Of a DNA stretch of 41,199 bases, positions 48 through 5,170 are shown piece after piece. The stretch is taken from the NCBI GenBank assembly GCA_017473905.1, contig JAFUJA010000025.1:1-41199 (forward strand). Direction: 5' to 3'. Position 1 is the stretch's first letter, and every line of letters begins with the position of its first letter. Position numbers and translations under genes: made by a program. The DNA is from Lachnospiraceae bacterium (lineage in GTDB: Bacteria; Bacillota; Clostridia; Lachnospirales; Lachnospiraceae). The notes under the pieces were generated by a model. It was not told the origin of the DNA. It saw only the letters and a list, made by a program, of their open reading frames with translations, and did no database searches.

Positions 48-76
48 TTGAAATATAAAACATGGCGTGTTAAACT
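48..76 (+). promoter_or_regulatory. Toxin promoter, copy 1
   Basis: A -35 TTGAAA (48-53), a 17-nt spacer and a -10 TAAACT (71-76) preceded by TGT form an extended -10 promoter. The predicted transcript starts near 83, giving a leader of about 38 nt. Confidence 0.65.
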
Positions 77-96
77 AATTCCGTGGGAACGGTTGT

Positions 97-113
97 CCCC
101 TTGAGAAAGGGGG
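97..113 (+). promoter_or_regulatory. SD-sequestering hairpin, toxin copy 1
   Basis: CCCCTT (97-102) pairs with AAGGGG (107-112) across a GAGA loop of the GNRA class. The 3' arm is the Shine-Dalgarno sequence of the ORF that starts at 121. An alternative stem, GGGA (85-88) with TCCC (96-99), would compete for the same C run and free the ribosome site. Confidence 0.6.
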
Positions 114-120
114 AATGCCT

Positions 121-219
121 ATGGACTTTGTTACATATGAGAATCTCATACAGTTGGGATTGTTTGTGATAGCGTTAATAGGTCTTGTATACAAGATAAG
201 TCATAAAGACAAAAAATAA
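121..219 (+). CDS. Holin-like type I toxin peptide, copy 1 (32 aa)
   Basis: The ORF encodes 32 residues: a short polar N-terminus (MDFVTYENLIQ), one hydrophobic helix (about residues 11-24) and a basic tail ending KDKK. This layout is that of the putative holin-like/Fst/TxpA-type small membrane toxins of Firmicutes type I toxin-antitoxin systems, which act by inserting in the cytoplasmic membrane. A strong AAGGGGG ribosome site lies 7 nt before the ATG. The frame is supported as coding because all three base differences from copy 2 inside the ORF are synonymous. A convergent antisense RNA overlaps its 3' end. The toxin role is inferred from architecture; a regulatory membrane peptide is the alternative. 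Confidence 0.72.
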   Translation: MDFVTYENLIQLGLFVIALIGLVYKISHKDKK

Positions 220-259
220 CTGCCCCTTAGCGTAGGAAACTGAGAGCAGTTATTTTTTT
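211..259 (+). terminator. Bidirectional terminator, toxin copy 1
   Basis: AATAACTGC (215-223) pairs with GCAGTTATT (246-254), with an inner CTTAG/CTGAG stem. A-tracts on the left and T-tracts on the right make it a Rho-independent terminator on both strands, as expected for convergent toxin and antisense transcripts. Confidence 0.8.
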
Positions 260-298
260 CAGTATTCAATAGCAAGGGGTACAACTCAGTACCACCTT
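212..298 (-). ncRNA. Predicted antisense antitoxin RNA, copy 1
   Basis: Transcription from the promoter at 305-333 would start near 298 and stop at the bidirectional terminator, giving about 85 nt. The RNA would be complementary to the 3' untranslated region and the last codons of the toxin mRNA. It begins with a small hairpin, GGTAC/GTACC. In copy 2 this becomes GGTAC/GTGCC, still paired through a G-U wobble. The convergent 3'-overlap layout resembles Fst/RNAII and TxpA/RatA. The ends are estimates. Confidence 0.5.
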
Positions 299-304
299 TT
301 CTAT

Positions 305-333
305 AATGTATCACATCCCAAAGCTTTTTACAA
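305..333 (-). promoter_or_regulatory. Antisense RNA promoter, copy 1
   Basis: On the minus strand, TTGTAA (complement of 328-333), a 17-nt spacer and TACATT (complement of 305-310) preceded by TGA form an extended -10 promoter. It points at the terminator of toxin copy 1. Confidence 0.6.
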
Positions 334-366
334 TAGGGATTCGATGAGAGAAAAACAAAACAACGA

Positions 367-395
367 TTGAAATATAAAACATAGCGTGTTAAACT
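367..395 (+). promoter_or_regulatory. Toxin promoter, copy 2
   Basis: The same TTGAAA-N17-TGTTAAACT arrangement as copy 1 occurs here, with one base changed in the spacer (383). Both boxes and the spacing are intact. Confidence 0.65.
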
Positions 396-415
396 AATTC
401 CGTGGGAACGGTTGT

Positions 416-432
416 CCCCTTGAGAAAGGGGG
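416..432 (+). promoter_or_regulatory. SD-sequestering hairpin, toxin copy 2
   Basis: This hairpin is identical to the one at 97-113 and sits 8 nt before the copy 2 start codon. Its 6-bp stem with a GAGA loop covers the AAGGGGG ribosome site. Confidence 0.6.
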
Positions 433-439
433 AATGCCT

Positions 440-538
440 ATGGACTTTGTTACATATGAGAATCTCATTCAACTGGGATTGTTTGTGATAGCGTTAATAG
501 GTCTTGTATACAAGATAAGTCATAAAGACAAAAAATAA
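440..538 (+). CDS. Holin-like type I toxin peptide, copy 2 (32 aa)
   Basis: This encodes exactly the same 32 residues as the ORF at 121-219. Codons 10-12 differ (ATT/CAA/CTG here, ATA/CAG/TTG in copy 1) but give the same Ile-Gln-Leu. It has the same leader hairpin, the same ribosome site and its own terminator and antisense promoter, so both modules look functional. Preservation of the peptide while the terminator loop drifts argues for selection at the protein level. The toxin function is inferred, as for copy 1. Confidence 0.72.
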   Translation: MDFVTYENLIQLGLFVIALIGLVYKISHKDKK

Positions 539-575
539 CTGCCCTCAGCCTGGAAAACTAGAGCAGTTATTTTTT
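530..575 (+). terminator. Bidirectional terminator, toxin copy 2
   Basis: The outer stem is the same, AATAACTGC (534-542) with GCAGTTATT (563-571), but the loop is two bases shorter and diverged. A-tracts and T-tracts again flank the stem on both sides. Confidence 0.8.
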
Positions 576-613
576 AGATTTCTAGCACAAGGGGCACAAC
601 TTAGTACCACCTT
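531..613 (-). ncRNA. Predicted antisense antitoxin RNA, copy 2
   Basis: This is the counterpart of the RNA at 212-298, starting near 613 and ending at the copy 2 terminator. Because the region after the terminator has diverged, each antisense RNA may act best on its own partner, although the terminator arms are shared. The ends are estimates. Confidence 0.5.
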
Positions 614-619
614 TTCTAC

Positions 620-648
620 AATGTAACACACCCTTCCTTTTTTTTCAA
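620..648 (-). promoter_or_regulatory. Antisense RNA promoter, copy 2
   Basis: The minus strand carries TTGAAA (643-648), a 17-nt spacer and TACATT (620-625) preceded by TGT. The spacer differs from copy 1 at many positions but keeps its length and both boxes, which supports a working promoter. Confidence 0.62.
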
Positions 649-697: not shown

Positions 698-1042
698 ATG
701 GATAGTCGCTCAGAAAAGTTAAAAGAGATTATTTTGCAGCAGTATCCCAGCATCCGCATGTTTGCAGGTGAGGTTGGGATTCCTCACGGAACTCTGGTTA
801 GTGCCATTAACAATGGAATTGACGGTATGGCGTGGGGACGTCTGAATTTGATTTGTGAGAAATTGCAGATTAATCCGGTGGATTTGGAACCTGTCTGCAC
901 TGATGATAAACACGGTCGTGATGAGAAGAGGCTGCTTGCATATTACAAACAATTGAATCAGGAAGGGCGCGAAAAGGCGGAAGCTTACCTGAAAGATATC
1001 AGTATGATTCCTGCATATTATGATAAAAAGATAAAAAAATAG
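698..1042 (+). CDS. Small XRE-family HTH regulator
   Basis: The 114-residue protein has an N-terminal Cro/C1-type helix-turn-helix (about residues 7-62; the pattern FAGEVGIPHGTLVSAINNG is the turn and recognition helix). A C-terminal helical tail, LLAYYKQLNQEGREKAEAYL, is common in stand-alone repressors of Firmicutes mobile or accessory regions. The start is set by AGGAG (683-687) 10 nt upstream. It probably binds DNA as a dimer. Its target is not visible; the nearby toxin array or the flagellar promoter at 1115 are candidates by position only. Confidence 0.8.
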   Translation: MDSRSEKLKEIILQQYPSIRMFAGEVGIPHGTLVSAINNGIDGMAWGRLNLICEKLQINPVDLEPVCTDDKHGRDEKRLLAYYKQLNQEGREKAEAYLKDISMIPAYYDKKIKK

Positions 1043-1142: not shown

Positions 1143-1216
1143 AAAACATAAGAAAGCGGAAGAACTCTGCATGTAACAGTAAAACGAGAGTACATATCAC
1201 ATGGAGGTGGATGAAA

Positions 1217-1639
1217 ATGGCAATTGAAGCATTAGGTGGTGCGATGAGTTTTCAGGCACAGCCCGTAGCGAAACCGCAGGGTACAGTTCAGCCTGCTATT
1301 GAGACCACGGAAGGTCAGCAGACACAAGCAAATCCCATGGTGGATTCCACGACTGTAGCAGTAGCACAGATTAACGGACAGCAAAGCGAGTATTCAGAGG
1401 ATAAGGGGAATCAGCAACCCACTCAGGAGCAGCTTCGTAAGGCTGTGGAAGAAATTAACAAGAAGGCGTATTCCTCAGATGTGCAGTTCGGCATTCATGA
1501 GGCAACCAACAGAGTAACAATTAAGATTGTTGACAGAGAAACCAAGAAGGTTATCAAAGAGCTTCCCCCTGAGAAGACACTTGACATGATTGCCAAGGCA
1601 TGGGAACTTGCAGGTATCCTTGTTGATGAGAAGAGATAG
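1217..1639 (+). CDS. flaG: FlaG-family flagellar protein
   Basis: FlaG proteins accompany the filament and influence filament length; the exact role is poorly defined. The 140-residue product has a low-complexity Gln/Thr-rich N-terminal half. The conserved FlaG domain (about residues 70-139) carries FGIHEATNRVTIKIVD at 91-106, IKELPPEK at 113-120 and AGILVDEK at the end. I place the start at 1217 rather than the in-frame ATG at 1211, because GGAGG at 1203-1207 sits 9 nt from 1217 but only 3 nt from 1211. It is the first gene behind the sigma-28 promoter at 1115 and lies 11 nt before fliD, so the two are probably co-transcribed. Confidence 0.88.
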   Translation: MAIEALGGAMSFQAQPVAKPQGTVQPAIETTEGQQTQANPMVDSTTVAVAQINGQQSEYSEDKGNQQPTQEQLRKAVEEINKKAYSSDVQFGIHEATNRVTIKIVDRETKKVIKELPPEKTLDMIAKAWELAGILVDEKR

Positions 1640-1650
1640 GAGGAACCATT

Positions 1651-3135
1651 ATGTCAGATGTAATGAGATTGACAGGATTAACATCCGGTCTGGATACTGA
1701 TAGCATGATTACAGCAATGGTTTCCGGACATAAAACAAAAGTGGATGAAGCAAAGCAGGACCAGACCATGTTGGAGTGGACCCAGACTGCATGGAAAGAT
1801 ATGAACAGTAAAATTTACGGATTATATTCCGGAAAGCTTTCCTCTATGAGAATGTCCAGTTCATACAGCAAAAAGGCTACCACTACTTCAAACAGTGCAT
1901 TGTCTGTTGTTGCAGGCGGTAATGCGGTAAACGGTACCTATTCTGCTAAAATTCATTCCATGGCGAAGGCAGGATATTTAACCGGTGCGGAAATTTCCAC
2001 CAAGACCGGCGGAAAAGTAACCAATTCCACCAAGCTTACTGATTTGGGTATTGCGGCAGGCGAGTCCTTATCCATCAGCTTCGGTGGTAAAAATACCAAG
2101 ATTGACATTACTTCCAATATGACCATGGGTCAGTTTGTAAATAAGTTAAAAGCAGTTGGCGTAAATGCTAATTTTGATGAAGGTAACCAGAGACTTTTCG
2201 TAAGTGCGAAAGAAACCGGAGCCTCTAAAGATTTTACTTTTACATCCGGTGACAATGCATTAAAGAAATTAGGTCTTAGTGCAAGCGTTGGTGCTACCAG
2301 AATCAAAGGTCAGGATGCAGTTCTTGAATTAAACGGTGCGAAGTTTAAGTCCAGTAGCAATAATTTTACCATCAATGGTTCTACATATGTTGTAAACGCA
2401 GAAAGCGATGAAGACATTACCATTACTACACAGAACGATACCAGCGGCATCTATGATATGGTTAAAAATTTCCTGACTGAGTACAATGATGTGATCAACT
2501 CCATGTCAGCTGCATATAACGCAGATTCTTCCAAAGGTTACAAGCCTTTGACGGAAGAGCAGATGGAACTGATGACAGAGAAGCAGATTGAAGACTGGGA
2601 AACCAAAATCAAAGATTCCCTTCTTCGCAAAGATTCTACATTGTCTACAGTAATGAGTGCTATGCGTAATGCAATGAGCACGGGTGTGGAAATTGACGGA
2701 AAGAAATATTATCTGTCCGATTTTGGTATCGGTACAGCTAACTACATGTCCGCAGAAGAAAATGAAAAGTATGCATACCACATTGACGGTGATGCTGATG
2801 ATTCAACCGTATCCGGTAAAACCGATAAGTTGAAAGCAGCAATCGCAGCAGACCCTGAACTTGTAACCAAGTTCTTCACCAAGTTATCTGCTAATGTTTA
2901 TGATGAGTTGACGGATAAAATGGCTTCTACGGATTACAGCAGTATCTACAAGGTTTACAATGATAAAAAGATGCAGTCCGAATATGATGACTATTCTAAA
3001 AAAATCAAAGACCTTGAAGCAAAGCTGAAAGAGGCTGAAGACAAGTACTACAAGAAATTTGCAGCAATGGAGAAAGCGTTATCACAGCTTAATTCCGGTG
3101 CAAATGCAATTTCCAGTCTTTTCACAATGAACTAA
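1651..3135 (+). CDS. fliD: Flagellar filament cap protein FliD
   Basis: FliD forms the cap at the filament tip that folds incoming flagellin. The 494-residue protein starts with the FliD N-terminal signature (TGLTSGLDTDSMITAMVS, residues 8-25). It has a large variable middle and ends in the C-terminal heptad-repeat helix (about 445-490, KKIKDLEAKLKEAEDKYYKK) that docks onto the filament. Length is normal for the family. GGAGG lies 8 nt before the ATG. It is the second gene of the sigma-28 operon, followed by a hairpin and then fliS. Confidence 0.96.
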   Translation: MSDVMRLTGLTSGLDTDSMITAMVSGHKTKVDEAKQDQTMLEWTQTAWKDMNSKIYGLYSGKLSSMRMSSSYSKKATTTSNSALSVVAGGNAVNGTYSAKIHSMAKAGYLTGAEISTKTGGKVTNSTKLTDLGIAAGESLSISFGGKNTKIDITSNMTMGQFVNKLKAVGVNANFDEGNQRLFVSAKETGASKDFTFTSGDNALKKLGLSASVGATRIKGQDAVLELNGAKFKSSSNNFTINGSTYVVNAESDEDITITTQNDTSGIYDMVKNFLTEYNDVINSMSAAYNADSSKGYKPLTEEQMELMTEKQIEDWETKIKDSLLRKDSTLSTVMSAMRNAMSTGVEIDGKKYYLSDFGIGTANYMSAEENEKYAYHIDGDADDSTVSGKTDKLKAAIAADPELVTKFFTKLSANVYDELTDKMASTDYSSIYKVYNDKKMQSEYDDYSKKIKDLEAKLKEAEDKYYKKFAAMEKALSQLNSGANAISSLFTMN

Positions 3136-3149
3136 GATTTAAAGAATGG

Positions 3150-3183
3150 AACTCCCTGCTTCGTGATGGAGTGGGGAGTTTTT
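3150..3183 (+). terminator. Attenuator-like hairpin between fliD and fliS
   Basis: AACTCCC (3150-3156) pairs with GGGAGTT (3174-3180), and a run of five T (3179-3183) overlaps and follows the 3' arm. It resembles a weak Rho-independent terminator inside the operon and could reduce fliS expression relative to fliD. Confidence 0.5.
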
Positions 3184-3216
3184 GCTACATATGACACGAT
3201 GAGGAGGATTTGCAAC

Positions 3217-3594
3217 ATGGCGACAAACCCTTATGCACAATACAATAACAGTAAAATTTTAACAGCCTCTCCTGCAGAGCTTACTTTAATGCTTTATGAA
3301 GGAGCAATCAAATTCGGAAATATTGCAATTCTTGCAATGAAAGAAAAAGATATCCAGAAAGCTCATGTAAATATTATCAAGGTACAGAGAATTATTACAG
3401 AATTCCGCTCCAGCCTGGACCGGAAGTATGAGGTGGCAAAGGACTTTGATAATGTATACGTATATCTTTTGCAGAGACTTTTACTGGCAAATGCAACCAA
3501 GGATCCTGAAATCATGGAAGAAGTTGTACAGCATTTAAGAAGTATGCGGGAAACTTGGATTGAAGTTATGAAAGCAAACAAAGGCGGCGTGTAG
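3217..3594 (+). CDS. fliS: Flagellin export chaperone FliS
   Basis: FliS binds the C-terminus of flagellin in the cytoplasm and prevents premature assembly before export. The 125-residue product begins with the family signature MATNPYAQYNNSKILTASPA and PAELTLMLYEGAI (19-31), followed by helices rich in charged residues. The start at 3217 is set by GAGGAGG (3201-3207) and by family length; an upstream in-frame ATG at 3163 lies within the intercistronic hairpin and is rejected. It lies between fliD and the FlgN-like gene, the usual place for late-filament chaperones. Confidence 0.95.
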   Translation: MATNPYAQYNNSKILTASPAELTLMLYEGAIKFGNIAILAMKEKDIQKAHVNIIKVQRIITEFRSSLDRKYEVAKDFDNVYVYLLQRLLLANATKDPEIMEEVVQHLRSMRETWIEVMKANKGGV

Positions 3595-3638
3595 CCTGAC
3601 AGTCGGGGGACTGTATCTAAATCGGAACGGAGTCTAAA

Positions 3639-4115
3639 ATGGAACAGAAATATATTCGTGTTATGCTGGAGAGCCTGAATAAAAAAGAAAAAGTACTTCT
3701 TCAGCTGATTAAAAAAAGTGAAGAACAGAAAGATATTTTAAGTGAAGCCAACATGAACTGGGACAGATTTGATATCAATCTGGAAGAAAAGGATATTCTG
3801 GTGCAGGAAATTCTTCGCCAGGATGAAGGTTTTCAGGGGTTGTATGATCGTATCAAAGAGCCGTTGGTAAACAAGAAAGAACTTTACCGTGAGGAAATCT
3901 CTCTTCTTCAGGAAGGGATCCGTAAGGTAACAGAGCTTGGCGCCAGACTTGAAGCAATGGAGCAGCGCAACAAGAAACTTGTGGAAGCAAGACTGGCAGA
4001 AGGACGCCAGACCATTAAGCAGTCACAAATCGGTTCCAGGGCAGCAGCAGAGTATTATCAGCGTATGAATAAAATCAACACGGTCGATCCCCAGCTCATG
4101 GATAAAAAGAGCTGA
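3639..4115 (+). CDS. FlgN/FliT-like flagellar export chaperone
   Basis: The 158-residue protein is almost entirely helical and charged, with long heptad-like stretches (about residues 8-125). It ends in a conserved-looking tail, YYQRMNKINTVDPQLMDKKS. FlgN-family chaperones for the hook-filament junction proteins end in a similar F/M-D-x-K motif, and the gene directly follows fliS. FliT is the alternative. The ribosome site GGAACGGAG lies just upstream. The family call rests on length, helicity, tail and neighbourhood, not on a strong motif. Confidence 0.62.
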   Translation: MEQKYIRVMLESLNKKEKVLLQLIKKSEEQKDILSEANMNWDRFDINLEEKDILVQEILRQDEGFQGLYDRIKEPLVNKKELYREEISLLQEGIRKVTELGARLEAMEQRNKKLVEARLAEGRQTIKQSQIGSRAAAEYYQRMNKINTVDPQLMDKKS

Positions 4116-4190
4116 AACCCAGGTAAAATCGAAGCTTTTTTATGAAAATAATAATTTTTGAAAAAAATGAAAAAAAATTCATTTTAGGTA

Positions 4191-4217
4191 TAAAGTTTTC
4201 AAAAAGAGCTCCGATAT
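4191..4217 (+). promoter_or_regulatory. Sigma-28 promoter of flagellin
   Basis: TAAA (4191-4194), 15 nt and TCCGATAT (4210-4217) match the sigma-28 consensus at 7 of 8 positions in the -10 box. Predicted transcription starts near 4224, giving a leader of about 125 nt. Confidence 0.9.
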
Positions 4218-4253
4218 ATATTACAAGTAAAACAAAGTTACTTATTAACCACC

Positions 4254-4344
4254 GTAATGAAACGAAACGGAGCGTACGGCCGGTGAGATTCATTACAACC
4301 AGTTAAGAACGAGTGGCAAGGATGCCACCGTAAATTCAAGGAGG
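4254..4344 (+). promoter_or_regulatory. Structured flagellin leader with two CsrA-type sites
   Basis: The leader has a long-range stem, GTAATGAA (4254-4261) with TTCATTAC (4289-4296). A second perfect hairpin, GTGGCA (4313-4318) with TGCCAC (4323-4328), presents AGGA in its loop. The loop context CAAGGATG (4317-4324) matches the core of the CsrA consensus, and CAAGGAGG (4337-4344) overlaps the Shine-Dalgarno sequence 20 nt downstream. Two such sites, one on the ribosome site, are the known CsrA arrangement in the Bacillus hag leader. csrA and fliW are not in this window. Confidence 0.68.
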
Positions 4345-4351
4345 AAAACAT

Positions 4352-5170
4352 ATGGTAGTACAGCACAATCTTACAGCAATGAATTCTAACAGAATGCTTG
4401 GTTTAACAGCAAGCTCACAGGCAAAGTCAACAGAGAAGTTATCTTCCGGTTACAAGATTAACCGTGCAGCAGATGATGCAGCTGGTTTGGCAATTTCCGA
4501 AAAGATGCGTAGACAGATCAGAGGTCTTACACAGGCTTCCGAAAACGCACAGGACGGTATCTCTTGTGTACAGACAGCTGAAGGTGCTTTAGCAGAAGTA
4601 CATGAAATGTTACAGAGAATGAACGAACTTGCAGTTCAGTCCGCAAACGGAACTAACATGAGTACAGACCGTGCATATTTGAACGAAGAAGTAAAAGCTC
4701 TTCAGAGTGAAATCAGCCGTATTTCTAACTCCGTTACTTTCAACGAGCAGAAATTACTTGATGGTACTTTCACAAACAAAGACCTTCAGGTTGGTGCTGA
4801 AAAGGGTGATACCATCACCATGAACATCGCCAGCATGACAGCTGAAACTCTTGGTGTTGACGCTGCTAACGTTACCATTGGTACTGTTACAGGTGCACAG
4901 GATGCTATCAAGACTATCAAGACTGCATTACAGACTGTATCTCAGCAGAGAGCAGACCTCGGTGCTATCCAGAACAGACTTGAGCATACTATTAAGAACC
5001 TCGACAACGTAGTTGAAAATACTACCGCTGCTGAGAGCCAGATTCGTGATACCGATATGGCATCTGAAATGGTTAAGTTCTCTAACAACAACATTCTTAC
5101 CCAGGCAGGTACAGCAATGTTGGCACAGGCTAACCAGTCTAACCAGAGTGTATTATCATTACTTGGATAA
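4352..5170 (+). CDS. hag: Flagellin, short Firmicutes type
   Basis: This is the structural subunit of the flagellar filament, exported by the flagellar type III apparatus. At 272 residues it is close to the minimal flagellin. The conserved N-terminal D0/D1 region covers about 1-140 ([34 protein letters not shown]) and the C-terminal D1/D0 about 185-272, ending [11 protein letters not shown]. The variable outer domain is almost absent. The TLR5-contact segment [11 protein letters not shown] lies at 87-97 with the key Arg at 89. A cysteine at residue 72 is unusual for a flagellin. AAGGAGG lies 7 nt before the ATG. Expression should be sigma-28-driven with CsrA-type translational control. Confidence 0.97.

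What the first reader, a model, noticed from the sequence alone, without database searches (positions are those of the whole stretch)
121..538. Duplicated holin-like toxin peptide held constant by synonymous changes
Seen directly: two 32-codon ORFs at 121 and 440 in a 319-bp tandem repeat encode identical peptides. The only three differences inside the ORF are synonymous. The peptide has one hydrophobic helix and a lysine-rich tail. This is evidence for protein-level selection on an ORF that standard gene calling would skip. The holin-like/Fst/TxpA toxin class is an inference from architecture.
Basis: partly seen in the sequence, partly recalled or inferred. Interest (0 to 1): 0.75.

Follow-up and report, generated by a model that had tools for sequence, protein, structure and literature searches.

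The report
Repeated toxin gene with RNA antidote
A gut-type bacterium carries three copies of a tiny membrane-toxin gene, each apparently paired with a small antisense RNA that would keep the toxin off; the toxin is of a known kind, while the way the RNA's front end mirrors the toxin message looks unusual.

Summary
In detail: two 32-codon ORFs (121, 440) in a 319-bp tandem repeat encode identical peptides with three synonymous differences. A third copy with the same peptide lies at the end of another contig of the genome. The peptide is a Hol_Tox protein (PF16935, 27.1 bits, cut-off 23.3), closest to the S. aureus type I toxin SprG1, not to Fst. Each copy looks like a type I toxin-antitoxin unit: toxin promoter, leader hairpin covering the Shine-Dalgarno (SD) site, ORF, bidirectional terminator, and a convergent ~90-nt antisense RNA with its own promoter. 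The layout recurs in Lachnospiraceae relatives; no Rfam family matched it. What looks new: the antisense RNA's 5' leader resembles the toxin mRNA's leader in the same sense, and resembles its own partner more than other loci's partners. In the window copies this likeness is short (p 0.025 and 0.015). By folding energy each copy's antitoxin prefers its own mRNA although the toxins are identical. Verdict: toxin class known, regulatory layout a probable new variant; transcription, toxicity and neutralisation untested.

The parts
48..76 (+). toxin promoter of copy 1 (TTGAAA-17-TAAACT, TG before the -10)
   Evidence: 3 promoter-like sites found in 1-700, 2.0 expected from shuffles, so weak alone; sense promoter score >=10 in 82 of 106 loci against 8.3% of composition shuffles
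83..258 (+). predicted toxin mRNA of copy 1 (ends inferred)
   Evidence: promoter and terminator positions; a slightly longer stretch, 76-258, folds at -60.1 kcal/mol, z -5.3
83..113 (+). mRNA leader GUGGGAACGGUUGUCCCCUUGAGAAAGGGGG; CCCCUU pairs with AAGGGG of the Shine-Dalgarno run (106-113)
   Evidence: alignment A3: 27 window-type sequences, two of them the window's own copies (L014, whose leader is diverged, was left out); pairs, without two-sided changes; SD mean unpaired probability 0.23
121..219 (+). toxin ORF copy 1, 32 aa, Hol_Tox
209..258 (.). bidirectional intrinsic terminator; region where toxin mRNA and antisense RNA overlap (about 48 nt)
   Evidence: inverted repeat 211-223/246-258, 100% complementary; folds on both strands; not reported by the simple terminator scan, which reports only the hairpin 278-293
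211..300 (-). predicted antisense (antitoxin) RNA of copy 1, about 90 nt
   Evidence: R2 hit 263-306 (its sequence is in R2's training set); 211-299 folds at -30.2 kcal/mol, z -4.65
273..300 (-). antisense 5' leader hairpin with a YUNR-type loop and CCCCUU complementary to the SD site
305..333 (-). antisense promoter of copy 1 (TTGTAA-17-TACATT)
   Evidence: script scan, score 9 (38.5% of shuffles also reach exactly 9, so weak alone); not reported
367..395 (+). toxin promoter of copy 2
402..575 (+). predicted toxin mRNA of copy 2 (ends inferred)
440..538 (+). toxin ORF copy 2, same peptide
529..575 (.). bidirectional terminator of copy 2
   Evidence: inverted repeat 530-545/560-575, 94% complementary
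530..615 (-). predicted antisense RNA of copy 2, about 86 nt
   Evidence: R2 hit 578-621 (in R2's training set)
620..648 (-). antisense promoter of copy 2 (TTGAAA-17-TACATT, TG before the -10)
   Evidence: (score 10)

Best explanation
Each repeat unit is a chromosomal type I toxin-antitoxin locus. A ~176-nt mRNA encodes a 32-aa single-helix membrane toxin of the Hol_Tox/SprG-TxpA group. Its leader folds so that CCCCUU covers the Shine-Dalgarno site. From a convergent promoter about 90 nt beyond the stop codon a ~90-nt antisense RNA is made that ends at the same bidirectional terminator. It pairs with the 3' end of its own mRNA over about 48 nt, and its 5' leader, a likely homologue of the toxin mRNA leader, carries a second CCCCUU that can hold the Shine-Dalgarno site in trans. 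Toxin is made only when the antitoxin falls behind. The copies share one toxin while the terminator loops differ, so each antitoxin is best matched to its own copy. Shown by sequence: family, copies, layout, recurrence in relatives, leader similarity, folding preferences. Inferred: transcription and RNA ends, toxicity, neutralisation, anti-SD action, copy specificity in vivo.
For: Hol_Tox above cut-off; profile match to the solved SprG1 peptide, E 4e-7. Toxin relatives, own genome counted, in 11 of 31 genus genomes (E<=0.01) and 122 of 397 family genomes (E<=0.001). Best antisense promoter score >=10 in 70 of 105 loci against 8.7% of composition shuffles; it lies 68-114 nt past the stop in 97 of 105. 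Both predicted RNAs fold better than 200 of 200 shuffles. Model R2 finds 9 untrained antisense leaders at E<=1e-6 in 36 sources (one, L107, is the same contig stretch as trained L035), and in the own genome its three strong hits are the three toxin copies (two of the three were trained). Model R1 over 291 Clostridia genomes: 4 hits at E<=1e-4, 3 of them 47-61 nt past a toxin match on the opposite strand. Cofolding gain -43 to -47 kcal/mol for the 3 cognate pairs against -11 to -20 for the 6 non-cognate. In 23 window-type loci the antisense leader pairs most strongly with the SD window (-16.29 against -10.95 for the shuffled window).
Against: No expression or growth data. In the window copies anti-SD complementarity is 6 bp; over 28 loci the longest helix is not clearly beyond shuffled controls (7 or more in 6 of 28 against 22% of controls; means 6.4 and 5.6), and the pairing is not locus-specific. 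Covariation in the antisense leader hairpin is moderate to weak, RNAalifold predicts no consensus pairs on A2 or A7, and the SD hairpin in A3 has no two-sided change. In the set 17 of 291 genomes hold a toxin match but only 2 of these had an R1 hit (strict filters, some of the 17 are probably chance, and the window's own type is not expected to match R1). R1's fourth hit (G487) has no toxin beside it. The cognate preference in cofolding follows in part trivially from a cis-encoded overlap. The copy-1 antisense promoter is weak by consensus.
Confidence: 0.75

Rival explanations
1. SprF1-like dual function: the antisense RNA acts only through its 3' overlap, and its purine-rich 5' leader binds ribosomes rather than the toxin SD.
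For: SprF1 acts through its overlapping 3' end and has a purine-rich 5' stretch that binds ribosomes (passage of PMC10579593); the antisense leaders here begin AAAAGGUGG or AAAGGGAAAG in many loci; the 3' overlap gives most of the predicted pairing energy, and in the predicted complex the two leaders do not pair.
Against: The leader also keeps the pyrimidine CCCCUU/CCCUC part and resembles the toxin mRNA leader, which ribosome binding alone does not predict.
Confidence: 0.3
2. The two leaders are alike because both bind one protein or other third partner, or because gene conversion between inverted repeats keeps homogenising them, without direct leader-leader function.
For: The similarity is same-sense, not complementary (28 of 66 same-sense at p<=0.01, 0 of 66 complementary); own partner closer than the nearest relative's partner (36 better, 19 worse, 10 ties; p 1.3e-4).
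Against: Neither a protein nor a conversion tract was looked for or shown; in the window type both leaders keep an SD-complementary CCCCUU.
Confidence: 0.3
3. Decaying or inert repeat: a relic kept similar only by recent duplication.
For: Tandem copies 98% identical over 225 bp; a decayed toxin with an intact antisense element exists in L032 1-260.
Against: pN/pS 0.13-0.50 against 11 relatives; leader, ORF and terminator are intact in three copies; the same layout recurs in many relatives.
Confidence: 0.07

Closest known systems
SprG1/SprF1 (S. aureus) and TxpA/RatA (B. subtilis) type I modules
   Same: Short single-helix peptide with lysine tail; sequence match to the solved SprG1 peptide; convergent antisense RNA overlapping the 3' end (passages of PMC10579593, and PMC4147584).
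   Different: 29.2 bits against a cut-off of 70 for the NCBIfam PepG1 equivalog; antisense leader resembles the toxin mRNA leader, a feature not mentioned in the passages read (the SprG1 and TxpA loci themselves were not compared here); tandem array.
par of pAD1 (Fst, RNA I/RNA II)
   Same: Convergent promoters, shared bidirectional terminator, 5' stem-loop hiding the SD site, antisense complementary near the SD, a YUNR loop (compared with passages of PMC7472228).
   Different: Toxin lacks the PXXXG motif; in par, DNA direct repeats make the RNAs complementary, while here the leaders are alike in the same sense, with only a 6-nt AAGGGG direct match in the window copies; the YUNR loop sits in the antisense leader, not in the toxin RNA's terminator.
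C. difficile type I modules (CD0977.1-RCd11 and others)
   Same: Convergent antisense RNA, duplicated copies, cognate specificity of antitoxins (passages of PMC7699646).
   Different: The paper says its toxins show no sequence homology to other modules; there one antitoxin (RCd12) still works on a duplicate with at least three mismatches, so copy specificity in the window is open.
PF16935 Hol_Tox family
   Same: Window peptide 27.1 bits, cut-off 23.3; 11 of 17 aligned genus-level peptides, the window's among them, match at E<=0.01.
   Different: The family model covers only the peptide and says nothing of the RNA regulation.

Membership tests
PF16935 Hol_Tox | profile score above gathering cut-off | tested here: met
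   27.1 against 23.3 bits; own-genome search over cut-off at all three copies (25.2 bits)
NCBIfam PepG1 equivalog | score above curated cut-off | tested here: not met
   29.2 against 70 bits
Type I toxin-antitoxin (SprG/TxpA group) | convergent antisense RNA overlapping the toxin mRNA | tested here: inconclusive
   promoter, terminator and element predicted and recurring; no transcript data
Type I toxin-antitoxin (SprG/TxpA group) | peptide toxic on expression | not testable with these tools
   needs a growth assay
Type I toxin-antitoxin (SprG/TxpA group) | antisense RNA neutralises the toxin | not testable with these tools
   needs co-expression
Fst/par | PXXXG motif in the toxin | tested here: not met
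   no proline in the peptide; motif from PMC7472228
Fst/par | convergent promoters and bidirectional terminator | tested here: met
   sequence level only:
Fst/par | direct repeats DRa/DRb giving 5' complementarity | tested here: not met
   complementary similarity of the leaders at p<=0.01 in 0 of 66; a 6-nt AAGGGG direct match remains in the window copies
Fst/par | 5' stem-loop sequestering the SD | tested here: met
   prediction only:

The most novel reading that the evidence does not exclude
A mirror-leader type I system: the antitoxin gene arose by inverted duplication of the toxin's own promoter and leader, the two leaders still change together, and regulation works by exchange between their hairpin strands (each RNA's CCCCUU can occupy the other's purine strand), while tandem copies keep one toxin but split into separate antitoxin specificities.
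Probability: 0.3. Interest if true: 0.7.

Novelty: new variant of a known kind. Interest (0 to 1): 0.5.

Why it matters
Toxin relatives of this peptide occur in 122 of 397 sampled genomes of the window's family, which the named loci show to be Lachnospiraceae, a major gut family. Two searches of the held library listed no paper that by title, abstract start or, for the one candidate opened (PMC11318856), passages describes such a system there. The predicted antitoxin RNA matched no Rfam family. Mirrored leaders would offer a simple origin for an RNA antitoxin, inverted duplication of the toxin's own leader. The array gives a direct test of whether copies with one toxin can carry separate antitoxin specificities.

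Tried and rejected
Fst membership: rejected (no PXXXG). Known RNA family: 0 hits in the window at gathering, 9 hits below their families' gathering scores at E<=5 in 1-700, and in 15 relatives one unrelated c-di-GMP-I riboswitch.

Long-range pairing of the mRNA leader with the stop/terminator arm looked attractive by eye but is not locus-specific (own -13.05, other -13.03), so I do not use it. The antisense leader x stop arm is not locus-specific either (own -10.06, other -9.86; 648 of 5000 permutations as good). Anti-SD pairing by helix length is not clearly beyond composition-shuffled controls, and antisense leader x SD is not locus-specific. Leader complementarity in trans is weakly locus-specific (z -2.9, 22 of 5000). 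A control (reverse complement of the antisense leader x SD) was itself locus-specific (z -3.6, 3 of 5000), as expected if that strand shares sequence with the leader, so it is no clean control.

I considered that tandem paralogues diverge specially in the antitoxin half (leader/ORF/3' identity: window .98/.97/.81, L138 .95/.99/.88, L136 .98/.99/.82 with its first two copies identical in all three parts, L137 1/1/.88; the fifth array, L139, the same stretch as L095 and parsed for 2 of its 3 copies, goes the other way.32/.73/.83). But 23 pairs of loci with ORF identity >=0.95 also average .883 in the 3' part, so faster 3' change is general. The 96% 3' identity of copy 2 with L004 (gaps left out) is an exception, not a rule.

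Phage and plasmid origin: no match for the peptide at E<=0.01 in either collection.

Rows dropped: of 129 loci, 4 did not parse (L103, L106, L111, L123); L116, L124 and L050 were parsed wrongly or over-long and dropped; L001, L002, L003 and L020 were mis-parsed and replaced by W1, W2 and C26; identical stretches were merged, leaving 107. 105 had enough 3' sequence, 96 passed the promoter-distance and leader-length filters, and 65 were kept as representatives. My regex put L012 in the window type although its antisense leader is of another type; it is not in A2 but stays in the W counts, where it is one of the 3 W loci at p<=0.01. Of the 29 window-type loci listed, A2 holds 28 (without L012) and A3 holds 27 (without L012 and L014); A4 holds 40 of the other 42 (without L053 and L089). 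The 28 loci of the YUNR count were selected on GGTACT, so only the last letter of YUNR is informative there.

Full report
OBSERVATION. Searching the window's own genome (1.72 Mb in 33 contigs, 71% complete) gave three matches to the peptide, the third ending 90 nt before the end of contig C26; Pfam's Hol_Tox model found the same three, over its cut-off. Since C26 ends and the window contig C25 begins inside a repeat unit, the assembly may have broken in an array of at least three units (inference; long reads would settle it). The 45 nt before the ORF are identical in all three copies, the ORFs 96-99% and the 3' parts 79-89% identical with gaps left out.

WHAT THE PEPTIDE IS. It matches PF16935 Hol_Tox above its cut-off (27.1 against 23.3 bits) and, below the equivalog cut-off, NCBIfam PepG1 (29.2 against 70). 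Its one credible relative with a solved structure is 7ns1 (E 3.7e-4 with the single peptide; 4e-7 with a profile of 17 aligned peptides, where the only other row has E 1.2). The entry's molecule name is odd, but the aligned part agrees with the SprG1 peptide printed in a passage of PMC10579593, whose abstract start and passages report growth inhibition, membrane depolarisation and death on overexpression. Relatives occur, own genome counted, in 11 of 31 genus genomes (E<=0.01), 122 of 397 family genomes (E<=0.001) and 17 of 291 Clostridia genomes (E<=0.001; several are partial matches inside long frames, probably chance). No match in the phage or plasmid collections at E<=0.01.

SELECTION. Among the three copies the pairwise counts are 3, 1 and 4 synonymous changes and 0 nonsynonymous. 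Against 11 relatives of equal length pN/pS runs from 0.13 to 0.50. So the peptide is constrained, but so is the RNA around it.

THE ANTISENSE RNA. Scripts looked at 107 distinct rows from 129 loci (rows dropped are listed under Tried and rejected). In 105 with enough sequence, the best sigma-A-like promoter on the opposite strand scored >=10 in 70, against 8.7% of composition shuffles, and lay 68-114 nt past the stop in 97. In the window it is TTGTAA-17-TACATT for copy 1 (score 9, not remarkable alone) and TTGAAA-17-TACATT for copy 2 (score 10); only the second is also reported by the standard scan, where 3 promoter-like sites stand against 2.0 expected. The predicted RNA folds into a 5' hairpin and a terminator (211-299, z -4.65); the toxin mRNA folds with z -5.3. 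A covariance model of window-type antisense leaders (R2, 28 sequences) recovered 9 further leaders at E<=1e-6 in 36 sources, including the C26 copy in L002; one of the nine, L107, is the same contig stretch as trained L035, and one, in L032, stands beside a decayed toxin. In the own genome R2 had three strong hits, all at the toxin copies (two of them trained), and three at E 0.2-0.6 elsewhere. A model of the other leader types (R1, 40 sequences), run over 291 Clostridia genomes, gave 4 hits at E<=1e-4; 3 lie 47-61 nt past a toxin match on the opposite strand (G665, and G052 twice), and the fourth, behind an unrelated gene in G487, is probably chance. Of the 17 genomes of that set with a toxin match, R1 rang in only 2; the search used strict filters, and window-type leaders are not expected to match R1. 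No Rfam family covers the element in the window or in 15 relatives.

MIRRORED LEADERS. The antisense leader resembles the mRNA leader in the same sense. Local similarity reached p<=0.01 in 28 of 66 loci (22 of 37 F, 3 of 24 W, 3 of 5 G; one of the 3 W loci, L012, is misfiled) and complementary similarity in 0 of 66. In the window copies it is short, GUUGU(A)CCCCUUG, p 0.025 and 0.015. Partners in one locus match better than partners drawn from other loci (0 of 5000 permutations as good, 65 loci), also within the window type (10 of 5000, 23 loci) but not shown in the 5 G loci (493 of 5000). They match better than the partner of the nearest relative by ORF (36 better, 19 worse, 10 ties; Wilcoxon p 1.3e-4) and of the nearest by leader (30 better, 20 worse; p 0.003); still, the own partner ranks first in only 8-9 of 65 loci, median rank 9-13. 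R1, trained only on antisense leaders, had 14 untrained hits up to E 1 in 56 sources: 4 antisense leaders, 8 mRNA leaders in the same sense (E 0.026-0.86) and 2 others, of which the one in L060 lies at a hairpin away from any listed toxin. R2 gave 6 weak hits (E 0.06-0.39), of which 4 are mRNA leaders. In 28 window-type loci chosen by GGTACT the antisense loop fits YUNR in all 28; the role of such loops is from passages on par and recall.

HOW IT PROBABLY WORKS. In the mRNA alone the Shine-Dalgarno run is mostly paired (unpaired probability 0.23) and becomes free when 20 nt are removed from the 5' end (0.93). The antisense RNA is complementary to the mRNA's last ~48 nt, and its CCCCUU can pair with the SD: in 23 window-type loci the interaction energy peaks there (-16.29 against -10.95 for the shuffled window). 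Against this, helix lengths are not clearly beyond shuffled, the pairing is not locus-specific, and the predicted minimum-energy complex of copy 1 joins only the 3' ends, each leader staying folded on itself. Cofolding of the three mRNAs with the three antisense RNAs gives -43 to -47 kcal/mol for cognate and -11 to -20 for non-cognate pairs, so the copies may not fully cross-neutralise although their toxins are identical. This is a prediction; in C. difficile a duplicate antitoxin still worked with at least three mismatches (passage of PMC7699646).

COVARIATION. A4's inner helix, also predicted by RNAalifold, has one pair with 9 two-sided changes (GC to AU; 0 of 500 shuffles reach 9), but slides of -3 and +1 columns score higher on the covariation score (0.194 and 0.204 against 0.165). 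A7 has two such pairs with 8 cells (0 of 500), yet the count of pairs is reached by 347 of 500 shuffles and the +3 slide has 9 cells; A7 is fitted to the model, and RNAalifold predicts no consensus pairs on A2 or A7. Support for the leader structure is therefore moderate at best.

COMPARISON. par of pAD1 has convergent promoters, a bidirectional terminator, an SD-hiding 5' stem-loop and DNA direct repeats that make the RNAs complementary (passages of PMC7472228). The present units share the first three by prediction but have mirrored leaders instead of direct repeats, and the toxin is not Fst. SprG1/SprF1 and TxpA/RatA share the toxin type and 3' overlap (passages of PMC10579593 and PMC4147584). 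Searches: 'holin-like toxin' with type I toxin-antitoxin and antisense (1 paper, a finder of small membrane proteins, passages seen, no such layout); Hol-Tox with toxin-antitoxin and antisense RNA (0); PF16935 (1, on streptococcal prophages, listing only); Lachnospiraceae with type I toxin-antitoxin (4, of which PMC11318856 reports SymE-like type I toxins in prophages, passages; the others by listing only); 'putative holin-like toxin' (9, by listing only); tandem and cross-talk terms (7, one opened). The Clostridia review PMC6563280 was searched for six terms and one passage seen. None of what I saw describes this layout; this covers only the held open library, and most of it only as listings.

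Noticed in passing
window 698-1042: A small HTH-like protein (weak HTH_26, below cut-off) follows the toxin unit; relatives 63-74% identical follow the unit in L004, L022, L025 and L027 too, with differing upstream sequence (L022 and L025 alike) by eye. Its start lies close to the antisense -35 box.
   Followed up: partly
L032 1-260: An antisense element and terminator beside a decayed toxin frame, in a locus that also has an intact unit: an antitoxin apparently kept after its toxin was lost.
   Followed up: partly
L055 1824-1900: A c-di-GMP-I riboswitch lies about 230 nt past a toxin ORF; in C. difficile a c-di-GMP riboswitch is tied to a type I antitoxin (passages of PMC7699646).
   Followed up: no
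L136, L137, L138, L139 (= L095): Other tandem arrays of two or three toxin units in four other genera of the family; in L136 two units are identical over leader, ORF and 3' part.
   Followed up: partly
window 1211-5170: Flagellar genes (FlaG, FliD, flagellin) follow the array, and many of the later ORFs look like glycosyltransferases by eye; the C26 copy follows a CDP-glycerol glycerophosphotransferase-like gene.
   Followed up: no
L100 1399-1448: A weak R1 hit (E 0.73) on the strand opposite to the toxin mRNA, at the place of its leader.
   Followed up: no
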